Below, piece after piece: positions 40,160 to 51,966 of a stretch of DNA of 64,000 nt. Both the position numbers and the translations under genes were made by a program. The notes under the pieces were generated by a model. The model did no database searches, was not told the DNA's origin, and saw nothing but the letters and a program-made list of their open reading frames with translations. This DNA is from Dyella choica (GTDB lineage Bacteria; Pseudomonadota; Gammaproteobacteria; Xanthomonadales; Rhodanobacteraceae): the NCBI RefSeq assembly GCF_003977665.1, contig NZ_RYYV01000002.1:124001-188000 (forward strand). The letters run 5' to 3'. Positions within the stretch are counted from its first letter, which is position 1; every line of letters starts with the position of its first letter.

Positions 40160-41431
40160 TTGAAAACTCAGTTGATTCCCCGTGAACCCCTACACCGACC
40201 TACCGCGTTACCACCCAGCAAGATCAAGCCAGACAAGAAGTCATCGTTCGCCCTTGTGCCTCGCCTCGCCGGCTACGCACTCATGGCCTTCATTGGCTGG
40301 CTGCTGGTGTCGACGCTGGTTGAGCCCTGGATTTCCACCAGTGCCACGCGCGCCGTCATAAACGCACCAGCCATTCTGATCACCGCGCCGATCAGCGGCA
40401 CGGTAAGCGCCCAATACGCGCAAAATGGACAACCCATTGCGCCAGGACAAACCATCGCCGTAGTGAAGAACACCACCGTGCCGCGTGATGCGCTAACCAC
40501 GCTTCTTACGCAGCGCCTTGAGCTGCAAAGCCATCTGGACGACGTCAATAGCCGTCTGCAGGCCGATCAACACATGCTCGACTACACCAACACGCAATAT
40601 GGCAAATACCAGGAGGCAAGCTTGGCCCAGCTCAAGACCTCCTACGCGTCCATGCAGGCCCAGCAGGATGCGGCAGACGCCAAACTGGAAGCGCTCGATG
40701 CCAAATATGCACGCGCCATGGCACTGGAACGTGACGGCGCCATCAGCGCGGCCAACGTAGCCACCGCGCGCGCGGATGCCGATACCGCGCGCAAGGAAGC
40801 CGACGCATTGGATATGAGCGCCAAGAGCGTCAGCGCAGGCATCGCCGCCGCGCAACGCGGCGTGTATGTCTCCGCCGGGCAGAACAGCAATGGCCAGTTG
40901 CCGCAACTGGCGCAGCACCGCGCCGATATTCAAAACAGCATCAAGGAAGAGCAAGCGCAGATCGATGCGATGAACCAGCAGATGGACCATCTCAACCAAT
41001 TGGTCACGCATGAGCAGGATCGTGTGCAGGCGCTCTCTGACTATGCGGTCAAAGCCTATGCGCCCGGCACGGCACAGGAAGTGGTCGCCCCGATCGGCAC
41101 GCAAGTGGCCGTAGGAGCGACCTTGGTTCGTGCCACCGACTGCAGCAAGACCAATGTCGTGGCGGTATTCCCTGCGCGCATGACGCCACGCCTGAATATC
41201 GGCACCGAGCTGCGCGTACGTGTCAGCGAAACCAGTCGCGCACGCAGTGCGCACATCACGCAGCTGATGCCAAAGGCCACCGAGTCCCTGCAAAACAGCT
41301 ACAGCGCGCCCTTCCCCTATGCCGAAGATGGTTCTGTCTACGCACTCGCACAATGGGATAGCCCGGACCCCGCCGACCCAGCACTGCGATCCTGCACGCC
41401 TGGTCGCAGCGTGATGGCAAGCTTGCGTTGA
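40160..41431 (+). CDS. HlyD-type periplasmic adaptor (membrane fusion protein)
   Basis: Inner-membrane-anchored adaptor of 423 residues. A single N-terminal TM segment (about 33-55: LVPRLAGYALMAFIGWLL) is followed by a biotinyl-lipoyl half motif (ITAPISGTVSAQYAQNGQPI), a long alpha-helical coiled coil (about 105-290), and the second lipoyl half (VVAPIGTQVAVGATLVRA). This is the HlyD fold, bridging inner-membrane export to an outer-membrane TolC-like channel. The frame has no ATG before the TM segment: the only start before it is TTG at 40160. First gene of the four-gene polysaccharide operon. Confidence 0.87.
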   Translation: MKTQLIPREPLHRPTALPPSKIKPDKKSSFALVPRLAGYALMAFIGWLLVSTLVEPWISTSATRAVINAPAILITAPISGTVSAQYAQNGQPIAPGQTIAVVKNTTVPRDALTTLLTQRLELQSHLDDVNSRLQADQHMLDYTNTQYGKYQEASLAQLKTSYASMQAQQDAADAKLEALDAKYARAMALERDGAISAANVATARADADTARKEADALDMSAKSVSAGIAAAQRGVYVSAGQNSNGQLPQLAQHRADIQNSIKEEQAQIDAMNQQMDHLNQLVTHEQDRVQALSDYAVKAYAPGTAQEVVAPIGTQVAVGATLVRATDCSKTNVVAVFPARMTPRLNIGTELRVRVSETSRARSAHITQLMPKATESLQNSYSAPFPYAEDGSVYALAQWDSPDPADPALRSCTPGRSVMASLR

Positions 41432-42722: not shown

Positions 42723-44692
42723 CCCTGCCCGTCGATGAGATGAAGCTGCTGCATTTACTCGCGCTGACCGTGCTGTTCGGTATCGGCATGGCGTGCGTGG
42801 CCAATCCGAAACGGTCGCTCCATCGCCTTGTGTTCGGTACATTCTCGGGCGTCCTGCTACTGCGCTATGCCATCTGGCGCGCCACTGAAACTCTGCCTGA
42901 TCCCAGTCACGGCTTTGCCAGCGTGTGGTCTTACGTTTTCTTCTTCTTCGAGATGGTTTCCATCGTCTACACGCTTGCCACCATCGTGGTGATGGTGCGT
43001 CGTCGCGATTCGCGCCCATCCGCCGATGCCGGCGAAGCGAGGCTGCGCGCCGCGGGTGGCCGCGTCCCCGCGGTCGATGTATTCATTGCCACCTACAACG
43101 AAGACCTGCAGATCCTCGAGAAAACCATCGTCTCGGCGAAAGCCATCGACTATCCACATGTCAACGTCTGGGTGCTGGACGATACCCGTCGCGACTGGCT
43201 GCGCGATTACTGTGCGCGGATGGACGTGCACTACGTGAGGCGCGAGGACAACCGCCACGCCAAGGCAGGCAATCTCAACAACGGGCTTAAACTGTCCGCG
43301 CAGCACACGAACGCGCCCTACATTCTTGTGCTGGACGCCGATTTCGCGTCGCAGAAAAACATTCTTTACCGCGTACTCGGCCTGTTCGACGAGCCCAACG
43401 TAGCCTTGGTACAGACGCCGCAGTTCTACTACAACGCCGACCCGATCCAGCACAACCTGGGTGCGACCGACAGTTGGGTGGACGAACAACGCGTATTCTT
43501 CGACGTTTTCCAACCATCACGCGATGCGTGGAACTCAGCCTTTTGTGTGGGAACTTCGTTCGTGATATCGCGCGAGGCGATCACCCAGGCCGGCGGCTTC
43601 CCTACCGACAGCGTATGTGAAGACATCCATACGACCTATGTGTTGCGCAGGAACGGCCACATCACCCGCTGGCTCAACGAACGTCTCTCCGTGGGGTTGT
43701 CCGCCGAGGGCCTGATTGAGTACATCAACCAGCGCGGCCGCTGGTGCCTGGGCACGATGCAGGTGGCCCTGTTGAAGGATGGCCCTCTGCGCGGTCCCGG
43801 CTATAACCTGGTTGACCGGCTGCACTATATCCACGGGATGCTGCACTGGATCGGCAAGCCATTCCTACTACTGATGCTGATAGCGCCGGTGCTGTACTGG
43901 TACTTCGGCATCGCTGCGTTCTACACGACGCCGGAGCAGTTCGTTTTTTACGGCGTGCCAGCACTGGTCGGATTCTGGCTCTACGGCCCGTGGATCACCG
44001 AGCGAAAAACGCTGCCGATCTTCACCGAGGTGACCCAATTGGTGGCGGCCTATGCCGTGACGATGACCATGATTTCCGCTTGCTTCAAGCCGTTCGGGCG
44101 CCCCTTCAAGGTCACCGCCAAGGGGCTTGATCGCAGCAAAGTGGTTGTCCACTGGAAACTGGCCAGCTTCTTCATCGCACTCATGCTGTGCCTGATGGCG
44201 GGCGCTGTTAATAGCGTGATGACTGCTCAGATGAATGGCGGCACCGCGTTCAACCTGGCATGGACACTGATCGCGCTAGTGCTGGACTTGGCCGCGATCG
44301 TGGCGTGCGTTGATTTGCCGCGATTGCGGCAAGAAGAGCGCTTCCCCTTCCCGCGCGCCGCGCGCTGGCGTCAAGGTGGGCATGTGCAATCTAGCGAGTT
44401 CATCGATATCTCGCTCGATGGCGCGGCCATGAGCCACAGCCCCGTGATGCCCACGCCAGGCGAAGCGCTTGAAGTGTCCGTACCAGAAGTCGGTTGGGTG
44501 CCGGCCACGGTGGTGCGCCTCAGTAAACGCCGCTTGTGTGTGCGCTTCAAGCCGAATGAGGCAACCCGGCACCTCCTGATCAAGCTGATTTTTTGTCATG
44601 CCCCACACAACATCGCCGTCAAGGCACGTCCGCTACGCGCCTTCGCCCAACTGATGCGCATGGCTGGCTTTGCCCTCTTTCCTCCGCGATGA
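42719..44692 (+). CDS. Cellulose-synthase-like GT2 glycosyltransferase with PilZ domain
   Basis: Processive inner-membrane GT2 polysaccharide synthase of 657 residues. Two N-terminal TM helices, then the catalytic loop: DD (154-155) in VLDDTRRDW, DAD (206-208) in LVLDADF, D302 in SVCEDIHT, and QRGRW (338-342), the complete D, DxD, D, QxxRW signature. Further TM helices follow. The C-terminal domain has a PilZ signature, RxxxR at 537-541 (RQEER) and DxSxxG at 563-568 (DISLDG), indicating c-di-GMP activation as in BcsA. Start overlaps the preceding stop by 4 bases. The sugar polymerised (cellulose or another beta-glycan) is not certain. Confidence 0.92.
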   Translation: MTLPVDEMKLLHLLALTVLFGIGMACVANPKRSLHRLVFGTFSGVLLLRYAIWRATETLPDPSHGFASVWSYVFFFFEMVSIVYTLATIVVMVRRRDSRPSADAGEARLRAAGGRVPAVDVFIATYNEDLQILEKTIVSAKAIDYPHVNVWVLDDTRRDWLRDYCARMDVHYVRREDNRHAKAGNLNNGLKLSAQHTNAPYILVLDADFASQKNILYRVLGLFDEPNVALVQTPQFYYNADPIQHNLGATDSWVDEQRVFFDVFQPSRDAWNSAFCVGTSFVISREAITQAGGFPTDSVCEDIHTTYVLRRNGHITRWLNERLSVGLSAEGLIEYINQRGRWCLGTMQVALLKDGPLRGPGYNLVDRLHYIHGMLHWIGKPFLLLMLIAPVLYWYFGIAAFYTTPEQFVFYGVPALVGFWLYGPWITERKTLPIFTEVTQLVAAYAVTMTMISACFKPFGRPFKVTAKGLDRSKVVVHWKLASFFIALMLCLMAGAVNSVMTAQMNGGTAFNLAWTLIALVLDLAAIVACVDLPRLRQEERFPFPRAARWRQGGHVQSSEFIDISLDGAAMSHSPVMPTPGEALEVSVPEVGWVPATVVRLSKRRLCVRFKPNEATRHLLIKLIFCHAPHNIAVKARPLRAFAQLMRMAGFALFPPR

Positions 44693-44706
44693 TCCTGGAG
44701 ATTGCC

Positions 44707-46236
44707 ATGAAACCACTACTGTGCTCTGCCGCCCTTGCCAGCTGCATGCTGGCCGGCTGCTCGATGGAGCCGACTTATCAACGGCCCGGGATGCCCGTTC
44801 CCGACAGCTTTCCGTCGACCGCGCCAATCACACGAACCGCGCCGTCAACGGCAGCAGCACAGGCCGACGCCGAGGTAGCCAACCTAGACTGGCATCAGTT
44901 TTTCAAAGATACGGCGTTGCAGCGCCTGATTGAAATCGCCCTCGGCAATAACCGTGATTTGCGCGTCGCCGCCGCCAATATGACTCAGGCACGCGCCAAC
45001 TATGGTGTTGCACGTGCCAGCCTTTTCCCGGAGATTGATCTGCAAGCCTATGGCGGGCGGCAGCGCCTGCCGGCCATGTCACAGCAGCCGGCCAACGGTC
45101 TGCTTGGCCCGGTCCAGAATAACAACGACAAGGCGGCCACCTTCAATACCTATCAGGTACAAGCGGGCATGACCAGCTATGAGGTGGATTTCTTTGGCCA
45201 TCAACGAGCGATCGCCCACGAGTCCGGCAAGCTGGCCGACGCCAGTGCGGCCGAGTACGAAGCCGCACGCATTGCATTGATCGGCGAAGTGGCCAATGCC
45301 TATCTTTCCCTCAATGCCGATCGCGCCCTGTTGCAGTTGGCACAACAGACCTTGGCTGCGCAGCAACAGCACGCCCAGGTTATGAACAAGGCGTATGGCG
45401 ACGGCGGCGTGTCGGAATTCGACATGCGCCGATCGCAAGCCCAGGCAGACGCCGCCCAGGTAGACGTGGAAAACTTGCAAATCCGGATCGCCAAGGACAC
45501 CAATGCCATGGCGGTGCTCATCGGTCAGCCGTTACCAGCCGGCTACAGCGCGCCAAGCCAATGGGAGGATCCCTTGCTGACCGACGTGCCGGCGGGGCTG
45601 CCGTCCTCATTGCTCGACCGCCGTCCCGACATCGTCGCTGCCGAAGACCGGTTGCGTGCGGCCAACGCCGATATCGGTCGAGCCCGCGCCGCCTTCTTTC
45701 CCAACATCGCGCTGACCGCTGTGCTGGGCACATTGAGCGGTGGCCTTTCCAGCTTGTTCCACGCCGGCTCGGCTGCCTGGACCGGTGCGGTTTCCGGCAC
45801 GATCCCGCTGCTGGACTGGGGCAAGAACAAAAACGGACTCGCTGCCAGCAAGGCTGGTTACACCGGCGCGGTCGCGGCCTATGAAGGTACCGTGCAAGAG
45901 GCTTTCCGGGAGGTGGCCGACACGCTGGCCGTCCGCGACCATATCGTCCCCGCGCTGAAGGCCCAGCAGGCTCTGGTGGACCAATCGCAACGCATCTATT
46001 CCATCTCGCAAGTACGCTTCAAGGAAGGCCTCGACGACTATATATCCAGCCAGGATGCGCAGCGATCGCTTTACACCGATCAGCAAAAACTGGTGAGCCT
46101 CAAGCTTGAGCAGGCCGTCAACCAGGTCAATCTCTACAAAGCTCTGGGCGGCGGCTGGAATCCAACCCACAGCGGCAACACCACAGCACGCGTGACATTG
46201 CCTGTGCGGCAATCGTCCGTCCGGGCATCGCTTTGA
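44707..46236 (+). CDS. Outer-membrane efflux lipoprotein (NodT/TolC family)
   Basis: Outer-membrane factor of 509 residues. Lipobox LAGC at residues 15-18 predicts a lipid-anchored N-terminus. Repeated OMF helices (ANMTQARANYGVARASLFPEI and ARAAFFPNIALTAVLG) form the two-fold barrel/tunnel repeat, and the core signature LLDRRPDIVAAEDRLRAANADIG is present. Start at 44707 gives the lipoprotein signal and has CTGGAG upstream. Last gene of the operon; with the HlyD adaptor it would form a channel for the polymer or a linked transport substrate. NodT proteins normally serve RND or ABC pumps, but no pump gene is in the operon. Confidence 0.93.
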   Translation: MKPLLCSAALASCMLAGCSMEPTYQRPGMPVPDSFPSTAPITRTAPSTAAAQADAEVANLDWHQFFKDTALQRLIEIALGNNRDLRVAAANMTQARANYGVARASLFPEIDLQAYGGRQRLPAMSQQPANGLLGPVQNNNDKAATFNTYQVQAGMTSYEVDFFGHQRAIAHESGKLADASAAEYEAARIALIGEVANAYLSLNADRALLQLAQQTLAAQQQHAQVMNKAYGDGGVSEFDMRRSQAQADAAQVDVENLQIRIAKDTNAMAVLIGQPLPAGYSAPSQWEDPLLTDVPAGLPSSLLDRRPDIVAAEDRLRAANADIGRARAAFFPNIALTAVLGTLSGGLSSLFHAGSAAWTGAVSGTIPLLDWGKNKNGLAASKAGYTGAVAAYEGTVQEAFREVADTLAVRDHIVPALKAQQALVDQSQRIYSISQVRFKEGLDDYISSQDAQRSLYTDQQKLVSLKLEQAVNQVNLYKALGGGWNPTHSGNTTARVTLPVRQSSVRASL

Positions 46237-46885
46237 AAGGCAGGCTTCGGCGCGAAACTTTCTGCGTAGGAATTCGAGAGCGACTGGCGCCATCACCCAG
46301 ACACTGTGGTTGGCGCGCGCTCGCTTGCGAATGAGGTGCTTCGGTGATGACCCTAAGAAAGTCATCGCCCAATCAACAGGCACTGAGCTACCACCGTTTC
46401 ATCTTCTGCCGGCCCATACGAAGTTGGCGACCGGTTCTGCGGGCGGCTAGCAGCGTATTCACCGCTAGAAGTGGTCGACTGTGCGACAGTTTGGCTACTC
46501 GTCGCTTTACACGAGCCAATACTTGCTCATCAGTGGGACAACTTGACCAAACGGCCATGCCGCCGCTGGGCCTCGTCTTCCCGACGTGTGCGGGCATCTC
46601 CCGCCCAACTCACCAGGGGCTGGACTTGTATGACAGTCGATGTGACGCGGAAACTACAAAGCGCACCTCGCCGCAAGCCCGAAAGCCAATGCCAGATGGA
46701 CGTCATCCCTACCCTTCCCCTTGGGTGAAGTCACGAGTGTTGCAGTCGCGTCCCGCCAGGGCCATCGGAAAATTTCTAGGTAGGGGTTTCGCGCGCTCTC
46801 CCGTCTCCGGCAGCCGTAGTTGATGTACCAAACTTCGGTGCATGAAGAACAGGCCAAGGTGATCCTCGACCATCGCGAGCCTTTC
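46237..46885. other. Intergenic region without a supported gene
   Basis: About 650 bases between the 3' ends of the polysaccharide operon and the convergent LanM gene. Open frames on both strands have no domain character. No further short Cys/Ser/Thr-rich peptide that looks like a lanthipeptide precursor was seen here. Confidence 0.45.
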
Positions 46886-49804
46886 TCAAGCCAGGGTAAG
46901 CACCGAAGGTAGCTGGCTGGCCGGATGCATACGCAGCAGTTGATAAGCCACTCCTGCGACGCCGGTCATCAAGCCCGGCACGAAAATATCCTTGGTCATG
47001 CCGCAGGTGGGACCATGACTCTCCAGACTGCTGAGTATCGAAGCCTGCAGGTGTTCGCTGCTCATGCCTTTCGGAGCCTCGCCCGCGGCGATGGCGTGCT
47101 CAAACATTTCCCACACGCTGAGATCGCCGTGGCACAGGCAATGGTCAAGGCCAAGGCCAAAGTGCCAGGTCGCCGCTGCGGCGCGACGTAGCAGCAACCG
47201 CGTGGAGGGATGTGTCAATTCAGGGTCGAGGTCTACATGCGCCAATCCAATACCGACGGCCCCATTGCACCATGTCGCGGCACCAAGGGCTCTTTCGGTC
47301 GTGCGCAGATCCCTCCAATTGCCATGCTCCGTATCAAACAATGAGTCGTCGTAAGCAAACGCTGCGTCCGCCAGCTCGTCATAGCGGGATTCACCGCTGG
47401 CACGGGCTAACTTGCGCAGAGCCCAGCCGATGCCGGTTGCCCCGTGCGAGAAACCACCCAAACCCGCCATGCCCGATTCGCCGCCCCAACAAGCCAATCC
47501 ATCCTGGTAGCGAGCACGCTCGCACAACAAGTCACCGAACTGTCGAGCCATCGTCAAATAGCCGCCAACCGGTAACGCCGCAGCCAGCGCGAGCAATGGT
47601 GGAATGGCTCCTGCGACACCGCTGAGTACGTCGTGGGTGGTGTCTTCCATGACGGCGTTGGGAAGCTGAGCAGCCAGTGCGCAGGCGCGATGCAGCATTT
47701 GCTCCTGCTCGATGCCCCAGCGAGCCAGCGTCAGGCAAGTCCAGATCTGAGAGCCCAGGCCAACATAGCCCCCCGGCAGGCGCGGCCTGATCTTGATGTC
47801 GCCGGCTTCGTCACGTAGACGCGTAGTTTCTGCTTGATCCAGGGTGCGCAAGGATGCACTGAGCAGCTCATCAAGGCCATCCACCGAATTGGCGCGCCCG
47901 GCATCGGTTTCGCGCAGATAGGCCGCAACCGCTACGGCGATGCCGGAGATGCCGTTGTAGAGATCCTGCTTGATCGGTTGCGTAGTACGACTAGTTGGGC
48001 CGACCACCGGAGCGATCCAGGCGATGCTGCCGTCGCCGCCGCGAATGGCGTTGGCAAGGATCTGGCGCATGATCGCCGCAGACTGATGGCGACGGCGCCG
48101 TTCGATATCGCCTTGGCGTGCCCGCACGGACCATAGCGAACCCTGCTTGGGTAATAGGCCTTCGCCGATAAAAGCGCTAACCAGAGCGGCCTGGATCACT
48201 TGTCGATCCAGTTGCAAATCCGACGTCCGCCAAGCTTGCAACACTTCTTCAATCCGGTCGCCAGGCGCAAGCCACTGCGTCCTGCCAGGCCCATCAAGTC
48301 GGCCATGACGAGGCAAGGTGCTGAAAAAAGGGATGTCGCCGACCATCAGCGCGTCAATTTCAGCCTCGATCACGGCAGCATCGGAGGGTGCCAGCGCAGT
48401 GCGCTCGGCCATTTCCGCCAATAAATCGAAGGCGCGCTTTCGCGCCGCACCCTCGTCATGCAGAGATATGGGGTGCCACAGCATGCGGCCGATCTCGGCA
48501 TAGATTTCCGTAGCCCGCACCACCACGCGTACCGGGCAATCAGCGAAGCGTCGCAGGCGCACCTGCAACTGGCCTTCGGCATCGAGACGCCGCAAGCACG
48601 CGGTCATTTCGTCAAAGGCTTCAAGTACCCGCGGCCAAAATCGCACCAAAGCCGGTTGTTCGCTGGGTTGATTCTGTGCGGCCATCAGCTCCGTCATGAT
48701 GGAACCAAGACGAGCCTCGTCAGTGCCCACGTTCTCGATAATGGCTTGCGGCTGCATGGGTTGTTGCCCCCGCAACCTACCAATGCCGGAACTATCGACA
48801 CCGCGCCAGCCCAAAGCTTGGCCGCGTGCTGGCAGTAGCCCTATGGCCAGGACGGTCCCTCCGAGCACCTCGACTGCCTGATCAACGGCCTGCCCCCATC
48901 CTGACGGACGTGGCGGCATCCTTGGGGTAAAAAGCGTCTCGCAATCCACCACCACGGGATGTGGCCCCATCGCGATGAGATTCTCAGCATGCAGATCACT
49001 GCCACCCAGCACGCGCATTAGCGCTAACCAATGGCCGATGCCTCGGTAGAAGTCGTGCAGCTCACTGTCGTCGGCGGCATAGCGATGCGCGACAAACTCG
49101 GCCCACCCGTACCCTGGATAGACCGCAACGCGCGGAACTTTCATCGATGAGGTACTACCGCAAGTGGCCAAGTACTCGATCAAATCGTGCAGCTCGGCAT
49201 CTACAGCCACCGAATGCGGCTTATAGACTAAGCGGCCACCTTCGGTGCGCAGCAGAACCACCGACTGGCCGTCGCAATGGCTGTCACCGGTACCGATGCT
49301 CAGCTCCAGCAGATCCCCCGGCTTGCCGCCACACAGTGATGCCAAGGCAGGCCGGTCTGTTGCCCACCGCTGAGCAAAACGCAGTATGGCGGAACAACGG
49401 TTATCGACAATACGGGCTATTCGAGTGGATAGCGTGGCATAGTGCTCAGCCAAACCCTCCCACCAGCTCAACTCAGCGGCGATCGCGCAAAATTCCCGCC
49501 AACGCTGCTGGGCGTCTTCACCCCCCAACCGTCCGGTTACCCGGGCGGCATTGAGTTCCAACAAGAGCAGCCGGGTCAGCTTGCCGTGCAGAGTCGAGAG
49601 CAGAGACGAGCGTGTTGCCTGGAGTATCGTTGCGCGCTCGCACGCACCTAGCCCCGGTATGGTTTGAAGCTGGGCTGCCAGTCGAACCAAGCCAGGCTCG
49701 ACAAGGCAGCCCAAAGTAGCGGTAAAACCGCCAGCATCTGCGGATGAAGGCATCTGGGGATTACGAGCCGCAGAGACAGTGGCGCCGCTTTCAGCGACCT
49801 TCAC
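46886..49804 (-). CDS. lanM: Class II lanthipeptide synthetase LanM
   Basis: Bifunctional lanthionine synthetase of 972 residues. The N-terminal two thirds is the DUF4135 dehydratase domain, recognisable from RLVYKPHSVAVDAELHDLI, FVAHRYAADDSE, LGGSDLHAENLIAMGPHPVVVDCETLF and the R..R patches that follow. The C-terminal LanC-like cyclase has NGISGIAVAVAAYL, LSGVAGAIPPLLA, GFSHGATGIGWAL and the zinc ligands Cys846 (WCNGAVGIGLA), Cys891 and His892 (CLCHGD). It phosphorylates and dehydrates Ser/Thr of a precursor, then adds Cys thiols. The start is GTG with AGAGGG upstream. The likely precursor lies 98 bases upstream. No LanT transporter/protease gene is adjacent. Confidence 0.95.
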   Translation of the reverse strand: MKVAESGATVSAARNPQMPSSADAGGFTATLGCLVEPGLVRLAAQLQTIPGLGACERATILQATRSSLLSTLHGKLTRLLLLELNAARVTGRLGGEDAQQRWREFCAIAAELSWWEGLAEHYATLSTRIARIVDNRCSAILRFAQRWATDRPALASLCGGKPGDLLELSIGTGDSHCDGQSVVLLRTEGGRLVYKPHSVAVDAELHDLIEYLATCGSTSSMKVPRVAVYPGYGWAEFVAHRYAADDSELHDFYRGIGHWLALMRVLGGSDLHAENLIAMGPHPVVVDCETLFTPRMPPRPSGWGQAVDQAVEVLGGTVLAIGLLPARGQALGWRGVDSSGIGRLRGQQPMQPQAIIENVGTDEARLGSIMTELMAAQNQPSEQPALVRFWPRVLEAFDEMTACLRRLDAEGQLQVRLRRFADCPVRVVVRATEIYAEIGRMLWHPISLHDEGAARKRAFDLLAEMAERTALAPSDAAVIEAEIDALMVGDIPFFSTLPRHGRLDGPGRTQWLAPGDRIEEVLQAWRTSDLQLDRQVIQAALVSAFIGEGLLPKQGSLWSVRARQGDIERRRRHQSAAIMRQILANAIRGGDGSIAWIAPVVGPTSRTTQPIKQDLYNGISGIAVAVAAYLRETDAGRANSVDGLDELLSASLRTLDQAETTRLRDEAGDIKIRPRLPGGYVGLGSQIWTCLTLARWGIEQEQMLHRACALAAQLPNAVMEDTTHDVLSGVAGAIPPLLALAAALPVGGYLTMARQFGDLLCERARYQDGLACWGGESGMAGLGGFSHGATGIGWALRKLARASGESRYDELADAAFAYDDSLFDTEHGNWRDLRTTERALGAATWCNGAVGIGLAHVDLDPELTHPSTRLLLRRAAAATWHFGLGLDHCLCHGDLSVWEMFEHAIAAGEAPKGMSSEHLQASILSSLESHGPTCGMTKDIFVPGLMTGVAGVAYQLLRMHPASQLPSVLTLA

Positions 49805-49886
49805 TAGCGAAACCCTCTTTCAAAAGCGCTTGCATAGAGGCTTGATTCCTCGCAATAAGACGATTTCAATGAAGGTAGACGCTTGT

Positions 49887-49901
49887 CGTCAGGAGCTGAC
49901 G
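49887..49901 (-). terminator. Hairpin between lanthipeptide precursor and LanM genes
   Basis: A perfect 6-bp stem CGTCAG / CTGACG with a 3-base loop starts one base after the precursor stop codon. It has no T-tract; it could stabilise the precursor mRNA or partially reduce read-through into lanM, giving high precursor to enzyme ratio. Confidence 0.45.
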
Positions 49902-49902
49902 C

Positions 49903-50094
49903 TCAATTACAGCAGTTATCGTGAATGGCGGTGCCGCAAGTACACAAAAAATTCGTAGTTATCGATTCGGCGGAATTGACAATATCGGCCTTGGCATATT
50001 TTCCTCCGATGAACAGTGGGCCGGCCGGACTATCGACGTCCGCGCTCGCACGCCATTGCGCAACCAAGGCCTCACCTTCCAATACCGTGTCCAT
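49903..50094 (-). CDS. lanA: Lanthipeptide precursor peptide (LanA)
   Basis: 63-residue peptide and the expected substrate of LanM. The leader (MDTVLEGEALVAQWRASADV) is followed by SPAG, resembling the PAG element of mersacidin-type class II leaders; an IGG segment occurs at about residues 29-31. The C-terminal core ITTNFLCTCGTAIHDNCCN contains four Thr and four Cys (a Cys-x-Cys and a Cys-Cys pair), the composition needed for up to four methyllanthionine rings; one Ser precedes it. A strong GAGGAG Shine-Dalgarno lies seven bases before the ATG. The exact leader cleavage site (double-Gly or later) and ring pattern are not known. The short ORF, its placement directly before lanM, and its Shine-Dalgarno support the call. 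Confidence 0.83.
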   Translation of the reverse strand: MDTVLEGEALVAQWRASADVDSPAGPLFIGGKYAKADIVNSAESITTNFLCTCGTAIHDNCCN

Positions 50095-50327
50095 AGCACT
50101 CTCCTCACTGTTAAGTTTCGGCTGAGTAACGAAAACGACAAAGGATTCCCCCTACCGGCCACTCACCCCATTTCGTGGCCGTTCCCAAAGTTAGCACCAG
50201 GTCGAATGCGTGGCAATGAGAGCGCTAAAAGTCAAGGATAGGCGAAAAGAGGTCGGAAGCTTTAGCATCCCTTCATTCGATCAAGAAATGGCAAACTAGT
50301 CGGAGAGTTCTTTAGGGGAATATTTTC

Positions 50328-50915
50328 ATGCCATGGCTTCCGATATACGCGTCGAGGCATGATCAGGCCGAATTATTTGAGTATTTGAACAACTCGCCGG
50401 ACCTCGCTTTCATCAGGTCCGATGGAGCGGGACGCTGGCGGGCATTCGAAAAGCTCGAATCGTGGTGTGACGGCAGATATTGCCTATGGCACACTGAAAG
50501 CGGCCCACTGCCACTTCTCCAAACTTGGGGCAAAGCTCATCGAGTCGTAAACGACCCCTTTGAAGGCTGGGTTGAAGTTCGCCCCGGCGCAGATAAATCG
50601 CAACCGTATTTCGGCGCGGGCCATCCGGGAATCATTTGGTTCAATGCCTATTCGTCAGATCCACGTTCAGCGAATGTCTCGACGATTGGTATTTCATCCT
50701 TCGAGTGGATTGGAAACCACTATCAAGCTCTCGGCAACGTCGCCGCTCCCTCTACAAAGGCCCTATGGGGCTCACTGCGTCGATGGGTGAGCAAACGTGC
50801 CGTCAAGGTCCCGCGTGATGGGCCGGCGCAATCCACACCAGCTGAAATTTGGGCCATGAGCGACGCTCTTGAACTATTCTCGAAAGGCATTCCTGGAGCT
50901 CCCAATCCACCCTAA
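50328..50915 (+). CDS. Hypothetical protein divergent from the lanthipeptide locus
   Basis: Protein of 195 residues that I cannot assign to a characterised family. It has no signal peptide or TM segment and is rich in Trp and aromatic residues (PWLPIYASRHDQ, RWRAFEKLESW, GIIWFNAYSS, FEWIGNHYQALG). The start MPWLPIYA and the segment DLAFIRSDGAGRW give it a single compact-domain look. It is divergent from the precursor gene (gap about 230 bases) and could be an immunity or accessory protein, but this is only positional inference; it may equally be an unrelated small gene. Confidence 0.72.
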   Translation: MPWLPIYASRHDQAELFEYLNNSPDLAFIRSDGAGRWRAFEKLESWCDGRYCLWHTESGPLPLLQTWGKAHRVVNDPFEGWVEVRPGADKSQPYFGAGHPGIIWFNAYSSDPRSANVSTIGISSFEWIGNHYQALGNVAAPSTKALWGSLRRWVSKRAVKVPRDGPAQSTPAEIWAMSDALELFSKGIPGAPNPP

Positions 50916-50934: not shown

Positions 50935-51825
50935 TTAGCTCCTGCGCGGGTGCTCGGCGAGCGCCTGCGATTTCGCCACGATGAAAGCCTCCTCGTGCCG
51001 CTCAATCTGCTTGCTGTCGCAAATACGGCATAGCAGCTTTCCTCCCTTTCCGGTCAGCATCACCTTCGAATCTTGCCTGCATTGCGTGCAGATGCTGAAG
51101 CCGGTCCCGGCCAGGTCGAGATAGGGCTCGAACCAGCGGCATTGGGTGTTCGGCAGCATCGCCGAGAGCCATGCATACTCGGGCATCGGCAGCCGATTGC
51201 CAACGCCGAGGAACTTGAGCCCCGACAGGTTCGCGAGCGGTCGCAGCGTTTTGACCTTCGATGTGTCGATCGCGAGTGACTGCAGCCATGTCATCTGGCC
51301 AAACGTTTCCAGTGCGCCAATGTCCTGCCGCGTCCACATGCTCCCGGTAACAGCGAGGGATTCGAGTGAGGTCAGCCGTGCCAGCGGCGAAAAATCCGTG
51401 ACCCGCTTGAAATTTTCGATCTCGAGCAAGCGCAAGTTCGAAAGCGCTGCAAGTGGCTCGACGGACTCGATTTTCGTCGAACTGCCGAAATAGAGATAAC
51501 GAAGGTGCCTTAGATTCCCGATCGAGGAGATGTCGCGGACATTGCTCCATTTGATCTGCAGGCATTCGAGGTGTGTCATGCGGCATGCAGCTTCGAGCAA
51601 CGGCGGCGTGACATGCGACCACAGGCTGAGCCAGCGCACATTGTGCAATTCAGGCAACCGCTCGACCCATTGCTTGATCGCCTGCTTCTTTTCCTTTTCG
51701 GAAACGCGGCCAAGATCCCATGAGAGCTGCAGGCGCTCGCCTCCATCATAGTCACCGTAGGACGCGACCGACTTTGGCCACTGCGTAACATGAAATGGAT
51801 AGGGATCGATGTTGGTCCAGCCCAT
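50935..51825 (-). CDS. Leucine-rich repeat protein with C-terminal zinc-ribbon-like motif
   Basis: Soluble 296-residue protein. Leucine-rich repeats of the internalin-like type occupy about residues 60-230: LHNVRWLSLWSH, LECLQIKWSNVRDI, LRHLRYLYFGSS, LSNLRLLEIENF, LTSLESLAVTGS, LQSLAIDTSKVKTL, LSGLKFLGVGN. The C-terminus has CTQCRQDS and CRIC, a CxxC-x(n)-CxxC zinc-ribbon pattern. No export signal, so cytosolic; likely a protein- or nucleic-acid-binding scaffold. The start at 51825 is preferred because upstream codons lack repeat character. No functional neighbour identified. Confidence 0.78.
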   Translation of the reverse strand: MGWTNIDPYPFHVTQWPKSVASYGDYDGGERLQLSWDLGRVSEKEKKQAIKQWVERLPELHNVRWLSLWSHVTPPLLEAACRMTHLECLQIKWSNVRDISSIGNLRHLRYLYFGSSTKIESVEPLAALSNLRLLEIENFKRVTDFSPLARLTSLESLAVTGSMWTRQDIGALETFGQMTWLQSLAIDTSKVKTLRPLANLSGLKFLGVGNRLPMPEYAWLSAMLPNTQCRWFEPYLDLAGTGFSICTQCRQDSKVMLTGKGGKLLCRICDSKQIERHEEAFIVAKSQALAEHPRRS

Positions 51826-51966
51826 GCCTTGCCGCCTTTCTATCAGGTGCCTCTGAGGCAAGTATATGCGCGCGCCATAGCGGCCTGTCCGAGTGCGTTT
51901 TGAGGTGACAAGGGCTGTCAGCAGACCCGATCAGGCCGCTCGTCCCATCCTGGGCTTGACATTATG

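What the first reader, a model, noticed from the sequence alone, without database searches (positions are those of the whole stretch)
49903..50094. Unreported-looking lanthipeptide precursor with four Thr / four Cys core
A 63-residue ORF with a GAGGAG Shine-Dalgarno lies directly upstream of a full-length LanM. Its leader contains a PAG element resembling mersacidin-type leaders and its core has exactly four Thr and four Cys (motifs CTC and CC). The pattern predicts up to four methyllanthionine rings in a compact peptide. Class II lanthipeptides from Xanthomonadales-type Gram-negatives are rarely described.
Basis: partly seen in the sequence, partly recalled or inferred. Interest (0 to 1): 0.88.

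Follow-up and report, generated by a model that had tools for sequence, protein, structure and literature searches.

The report
DUF6229 lanthipeptide precursor with LanM
A Dyella-type bacterium carries a compact two-gene unit, a small peptide and the enzyme that should tie it into rings; it is a real new member of an already described family of modified peptides (the DUF6229 or rhodanocin family), with its own ring-forming core.

Summary
ORF 49903-50094 (-) encodes a 63-aa peptide with four Thr and four Cys in its last 18 residues; a full-length LanM follows after 98 nt. The kind is known: the peptide matches Pfam DUF6229 (PF19740, E 2.2e-20), described in print as class II lanthipeptide precursors (rhodanocins, 2022, one NMR structure; 21 of 27 Lysobacter precursors, 2024 preprint). 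No NCBIfam model matched it. In 55 of 55 DUF6229 loci examined a LanM lies downstream on the same strand. The core TTNFLCTCGTAIHDNCCN belongs to a small HDNCCN subgroup, 3 of 61 unique precursors, whose LanMs form one clade and whose spacing differs from the solved rhodanocin. One member has only three Cys, so four rings are not fixed. The unit is a 3.35-kb block, 88% identical in Dyella silvatica, with different flanks and only these two genes in it. Best reading: a working class II pair making a 3-4 ring peptide, probably antibacterial. New member of a known kind; modification, leader removal, export and activity are untested.

The parts
49903..50094 (-). lanA-type precursor gene, 63 aa, DUF6229 (leader about residues 1-44, core about 45-63; the exact cut is not known)
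   Evidence: (PF19740 E 2.2e-20)
49906..49959 (-). codons of the conserved core TTNFLCTCGTAIHDNCCN (residues 46-63)
50101..50108 (-). Shine-Dalgarno-like GTGAGGAG, 6 nt before the precursor start
   Evidence: read; the same in Dyella silvatica
46886..49804 (-). LanM, class II lanthipeptide synthetase, 972 aa; dehydratase part (PF13575) 122-496, LanC-like cyclase (PF05147) 610-969
49805..49902 (-). 98-nt gap between precursor and LanM
   Evidence: D. silvatica is about 100 nt longer around the LanM start (gap 200 by the same ORF calling)
46885..50235 (-). block shared with Dyella silvatica (two pieces, 87.8 and 88.2% nt), from 141 nt before the precursor start to the LanM stop
   Evidence: blastn ends; no shared neighbour gene of 100 aa or more

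Best explanation
The two genes are a minimal class II lanthipeptide unit of the DUF6229 (rhodanocin-like) family. LanM reads the leader (W14-R15 ... PAGPLF), phosphorylates and eliminates Thr (and possibly Ser41/44) in the core, and its zinc site adds Cys 51, 53, 61 and 62 onto the dehydrated residues, giving three or four (methyl)lanthionine rings in a pattern that differs from the solved rhodanocin. Leader removal and export are done by functions encoded elsewhere, since neither lies in the unit. The product is probably a narrow-spectrum antibacterial. Shown: gene pair, family, conserved motifs, conservation of core and pair. Inferred: dehydration, ring number and pattern, cleavage, export, activity.
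For: PF19740 match. LanM match over 54-959; alignment over 65-971 to solved LicM2 (225 bits) and, over the dehydratase part, to CylM (73 bits), with GDSH 173-176, K195, SDLHAEN 269-275, D287, R430, T432, H787, C846, C891, H892 present (that these are the catalytic residues is recalled). 55 of 55 DUF6229 loci have a LanM downstream on the same strand (51 as called ORFs, 4 by tblastn; L089 is split between two frames, L099 is cut by a contig end). HDNCCN-core LanMs form one clade, support 100, inside a 23-row clade with the rhodanocin-spacing group. A family member made in E. coli had 4 dehydrations and 3 rings, was solved by NMR and weakly inhibited Klebsiella pneumoniae.
Against: No transporter or protease gene in the unit, and none found conserved beside it in the ORF clusters (ORFs of 100 aa or more only). 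An HlyD-like and an outer-membrane efflux gene lie 0.6-9 kb away but look like part of another operon. Three C39-peptidase proteins exist elsewhere in the genome, none linked to this unit. The double Gly at 30-31 is a weak cut site; the characterised relative also had a possible double-Gly motif and was not cut by LahT150. The CylM match of the cyclase part is not significant by itself (domain 2). No expression data.
Confidence: 0.9

Rival explanations
1. The pair is a silent or decaying remnant: precursor and LanM are left over, without exporter or protease, and no product is released.
For: Only two genes in the shared block; 1 of 16 genomes of the genus has this core.
Against: Both frames are intact; core 17 of 18 identical to D. 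silvatica while the DNA of the block differs by 12%; motifs kept. Lack of an exporter beside the pair is common: 41 of 58 loci have no member of the ABC cluster (other exporter kinds were not annotated there).
Confidence: 0.07
2. The product is not an antibacterial but a signal or internal peptide, which would fit a unit without immunity and export genes.
For: Two-gene unit. An immunity role of the unmatched neighbour 50328-50915 cannot be excluded, but it lies outside the shared block.
Against: The one family member whose test was read inhibited K. pneumoniae, though weakly (126 uM).
Confidence: 0.2
3. The peptide is a mersacidin/lichenicidin-family lantibiotic.
For: A short PAG motif in the leader (its presence in mersacidin leaders is recalled).
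Against: No NCBIfam model at E <= 1; only DUF6229 in Pfam.
Confidence: 0.03

Closest known systems
Rhodanocin (LanII) of Dyella sp. 333MFSha, precursor WP_043693394.1, DUF6229 (PMC9576775)
   Same: Same Pfam family, class II LanM, Rhodanobacteraceae, short Thr/Cys core
   Different: The solved rings T6-C11, C8-S14, T12-C23 plus Dhb18 imply the spacing TxCxxCTxSx3Tx4C, which the window core lacks. LanMs of the loci with that spacing are 50-51% identical to this one. The 333MFSha precursor itself was not seen in full.
Dyella silvatica RBB189 pair (L104)
   Same: Precursor 89% and LanM 88% identical, core differs by one residue (A56R), same block
   Different: Different flanking genes; about 100 nt more around the LanM start
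Lysobacter DUF6229 precursors, six network families (PMC11451712, preprint, passages read)
   Same: Class II, DUF6229
   Different: Whether an HDNCCN core is among them could not be checked: supplementary look-ups were capped at 0. Two genomes of another family of the order have a 54% identical peptide ending TGSMRINCCA, not HDNCCN.
Mersacidin/lichenicidin-type class II lantibiotics
   Same: LanM; PAG in leader (recalled)
   Different: No NCBIfam match of the precursor; no LanT found beside it

Membership tests
DUF6229 (PF19740) | HMM score above the curated cut-off of 25 bits | tested here: met
   72.8 bits, residues 6-62 of 63, profile 3-62 of 62
Class II lanthipeptide unit | LanM with dehydratase and LanC-like cyclase parts | tested here: met
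   TIGR03897 576 bits, PF13575 and PF05147; motifs in place
Class II lanthipeptide unit | precursor adjacent to LanM, with Ser/Thr and Cys in the C-terminal core | tested here: met
Class II lanthipeptide unit | (methyl)lanthionine actually formed | not testable with these tools
   needs mass spectrometry
Class II lanthipeptide unit | LanT exporter with C39 peptidase in the cluster (common, not universal; recalled) | tested here: not met
   none among the neighbour proteins scanned (15 neighbour proteins between 38923 and 61772, not every ORF); three C39 proteins on other contigs
Rhodanocin of the solved ring pattern | core spacing TxCxxCTxSx3Tx4C | tested here: not met
   5 of 61 unique precursors have it, the window does not
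Mersacidin/lichenicidin family | match to a named lantibiotic model | tested here: not met
   0 NCBIfam families at E <= 1 (HMMER filters drop most matches above about 0.1)

The most novel reading that the evidence does not exclude
The HDNCCN group makes a lanthipeptide with a ring topology not yet seen, with interleaved methyllanthionines around CTC-GT and CC, from a self-contained two-gene mobile unit that has no exporter, protease or immunity gene of its own and relies on general export functions of its Gram-negative host.
Probability: 0.35. Interest if true: 0.5.

Novelty: new member of a known kind. Interest (0 to 1): 0.33.

Why it matters
DUF6229 cores are numerous and varied (61 unique here), but one solved product was found in the papers read. 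A two-gene unit with a conserved short core is an easy target for expression in E. coli. It also sharpens an open question: how Gram-negative hosts cleave and export such peptides when no exporter sits in the unit.

Tried and rejected
Mersacidin-type reading: rejected, no model match.

A third, sub-cut-off DUF6229 match in the genome (G000:C23:139605, 19 bits, one stop inside) was looked at because a C39 transporter lies about 7 kb away. It falls opposite a 511-aa open frame and does not end in a core-like stretch; taken as chance.

The exporter could not be read from the neighbourhood. The window's HlyD-like (40160-41431) and outer-membrane efflux (44593-46236) genes stand with a glycosyltransferase gene on the other strand. 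The glycosyltransferase-efflux stretch is found in four genus members at 77-78% over almost the whole 3.5-kb query, and in part in a fifth; four of these five have no DUF6229 over the cut-off, and in the fifth (G009) it lies more than 1 Mb away. An ABC-exporter BLAST cluster occurs in 17 of 58 loci, but it mixes two kinds. Of four members tested, two resemble TIGR01194 cyclic peptide exporters (L027 295.3 bits, over the cut-off of 286.2; L067 283.3, under it), and two are MsbA-like and under all cut-offs in the 25 rows shown. A search of the own genome with one MsbA-like member gave general ABC matches, 46% at best over the ATPase part.

Empty-site test: parts of both flanks were found in relatives, but on different contigs, so an empty insertion site could not be shown. 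Horizontal movement rests on unlike flanks and on the block being as similar (88%) as the rpoB region (87.8%) between the two genomes. An efflux gene tried first as baseline had only chance-length matches.

Plasmid collection: one weak match (42%, E 1e-3).

Against or limiting my reading: by LanM path length the window is about as near to L083 (CGTxC core, 0.99) as to L095 (HDNCCN, 1.0), although the tree groups it with L095 at support 100. Two of my core groups are not clean on the tree (CGTxC 2 changes, CxxGCxCC 4; 'other' 5). The core groups are patterns of my own. Seven LanMs of the 58 loci are not in the tree: four not called as ORFs, L089 in two pieces, L099 cut, and the remaining row count is 52 because L082 and L104 are the same genome counted twice.

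Full report
What is there. The minus-strand ORF 49903-50094 encodes MDTVLEGEALVAQWRASADVDSPAGPLFIGGKYAKADIVNSAESITTNFLCTCGTAIHDNCCN, with GTGAGGAG ending 6 nt before its ATG. A 972-aa LanM (46886-49804, -) follows after 98 nt.

It is more than chance. Pfam assigns the peptide to PF19740 (DUF6229) with 72.8 bits against a cut-off of 25. As control, the family search on 14 named genomes gave 0 over the cut-off (with E up to 1, 4 of the 14 gave weak matches under it; with the stricter limits of the other three calls, none). Of 576 window ORFs of 40-130 codons, 11 have four or more Cys in the last 20 residues, and only this one of the 11 also has more than two Thr there. The Dyella silvatica ortholog differs at 16 codons, 9 of them silent, with 4, 4 and 11 changes at codon positions 1, 2 and 3.

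The family is known. PMC9576775 (sections 9 and 15 and passages of the discussion read) reports the product of a DUF6229 precursor of Dyella sp. 333MFSha: 4 dehydrations and 3 rings (T6-C11, C8-S14, T12-C23, with Dhb18) and an MIC of 126 uM on K. pneumoniae. [quoted passage not shown] PMC11451712 (a preprint; passages read) reports 72 class II clusters in Lysobacter with 27 unique precursors, 21 of them DUF6229; its precursors fall into six network families. Library searches: DUF6229, 2 papers; rhodanocin, 1 paper; three pieces of the HDNCCN-group cores, 0 papers. Of three broader searches only the listings were seen; listed papers that mention lanthipeptides in Lysobacter or Luteibacter (PMC10380237, PMC10745450, PMC11165876) were not opened. 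Most subscription papers and all supplements were out of reach.

Spread. In the window's family (GTDB sense) 42 of 233 genomes have DUF6229 over the cut-off. In an even draw of the class, 2 of 369 do: the own genome and one of the same order. In an even draw of the order, 20 of 398 genomes have a match to the window peptide at E <= 1e-4; the nearest after itself is G235 at 56% (D. silvatica's genome G125 is not among the rows, so it was not drawn or not listed). A relative also occurs in Sphingosinicella sp. LHD-64, an alphaproteobacterium (L110; its class is recalled).

The pair is the unit. Every over-cut-off place listed was taken with 12-20 kb (the window serves for its own place): 55 loci. 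In 55 of 55 a LanM lies downstream on the same strand, 51 as called ORFs and 4 by tblastn. L089 is split between two frames, L099 is cut by the contig end, and in loci with two precursors the second lies between the first and LanM. With three named loci added (58 in all), the LanM cluster covers 54 by ORF calling; the next cluster is a mixed set of ABC exporters in 17 of 58, and every further cluster is in 5 or fewer. That comparison used ORFs of 100 aa or more, so small genes would be missed. Window and D. silvatica share 46885-50235, from 141 nt before the precursor to the LanM stop, in two pieces of 87.8 and 88.2% nucleotide identity; D. silvatica has about 100 nt more around the LanM start. 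Beyond the block, the 0.8-0.9 kb of window flank compared on each side gave only chance-length matches, and no neighbour gene is shared between window 39001-62000 and the D. silvatica locus. The rpoB region of the two genomes is 87.8% identical; of three same-genus genomes 91-95%. An accessory block as similar as rpoB, with unlike flanks, points to horizontal movement (inference; no empty site could be shown).

The core. Of 61 unique precursors (found with an HMM of my own at E <= 1e-3, which missed the second precursor of L099 listed, plus L105 and L110), three end in HDNCCN: the window, D. silvatica (TTNFLCTCGTRIHDNCCN) and G235 of another genus (TTTFACTQGTRVHDNCCN). Three further unique relatives seen do not. 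The G235 form lacks Cys53, so that Cys and a fourth ring are not fixed in the group. The spacing of the solved rhodanocin occurs in 5 of 61, not in the window; three sister peptides of the same loci have it with one residue more. The link of that group to the 333MFSha product is by residue spacing only. In a LanM tree of 52 rows (quick method; L082 and L104 are the same genome) the HDNCCN rows form one clade (support 100), the rhodanocin-spacing rows another (99), and both lie in one clade of 23 rows (100). Core groups follow the LanM tree far better than shuffled labels: 8 changes against a shuffled mean of 31.5, least possible 5. The fit is not perfect: CGTxC needs 2 changes and CxxGCxCC 4, and by path length L083 (0.99) is as near to the window as L095 (1.0).

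The enzyme looks active. Alignment to LicM2 over 65-971, and to CylM over 77-494, shows the dehydratase motifs (GDSH, VYKP, DLHxEN, VDCET, VRVVVRAT) and the cyclase His, Cys and Cys-His (GFSHG, WCNG, CLCHG) in place (positions). The CylM alignment of the cyclase part is not significant by itself. Which residues are catalytic is recalled, not read here.

Mechanism. LanM should bind the conserved leader, dehydrate Thr and perhaps Ser, and close rings to the four Cys. T46/T47 with C51/C53 and T52/T55 with C61/C62 is the simplest pairing, but it is not shown. Leader cut and export are not encoded in the unit. A GG at 30-31 is a possible cut site. Three C39-peptidase proteins exist elsewhere in the genome, one of them an HlyB-type exporter over its cut-off. 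The characterised relative was not cut by LahT150.

Verdict. A sound observation of a real gene pair, filed as a new member of the DUF6229/rhodanocin kind with a small, distinct core group. Most of the surprise claimed at first reading disappears; what stays open is the ring pattern and the missing export and cleavage functions.

Noticed in passing
G000:C34:108254-111354 (L004, L042): A second DUF6229 precursor (ending TTQSCASGCSCC) with its own LanM (41% identical) in the same genome, in the other large LanM clade.
   Followed up: partly
L028, L038, L040, L098, L101, L102, and L099: Six loci, and a seventh (G146, L099), carry two DUF6229 precursors in front of one LanM; possibly two-component products.
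   Followed up: no
window 50328-50915 (+) and 50935-51861 (-): A 195-aa protein without Pfam or NCBIfam match at E <= 1 and a leucine-rich-repeat protein lie next to the unit; neither clusters with a neighbour at the other DUF6229 loci.
   Followed up: partly
L089 (G158), about 11403: The LanM beside a DUF6229 precursor is split between two frames; real break or assembly error not known.
   Followed up: no
L027:7797-9470, L067:12979-14634: An ABC exporter near the cyclic-peptide type (TIGR01194; 295.3 bits in L027, over the cut-off of 286.2; 283.3 in L067, under it) stands beside the DUF6229 unit and may be its exporter.
   Followed up: partly
L110 (Sphingosinicella sp. LHD-64), 9980: A DUF6229 precursor with LanM outside the usual host order.
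   Followed up: no
NZ_LT559118.1:8928761-8928967 (Nonomuraea gerenzanensis): Weak match (42%, E 1e-3) to the precursor with no annotated feature under it.
   Followed up: no
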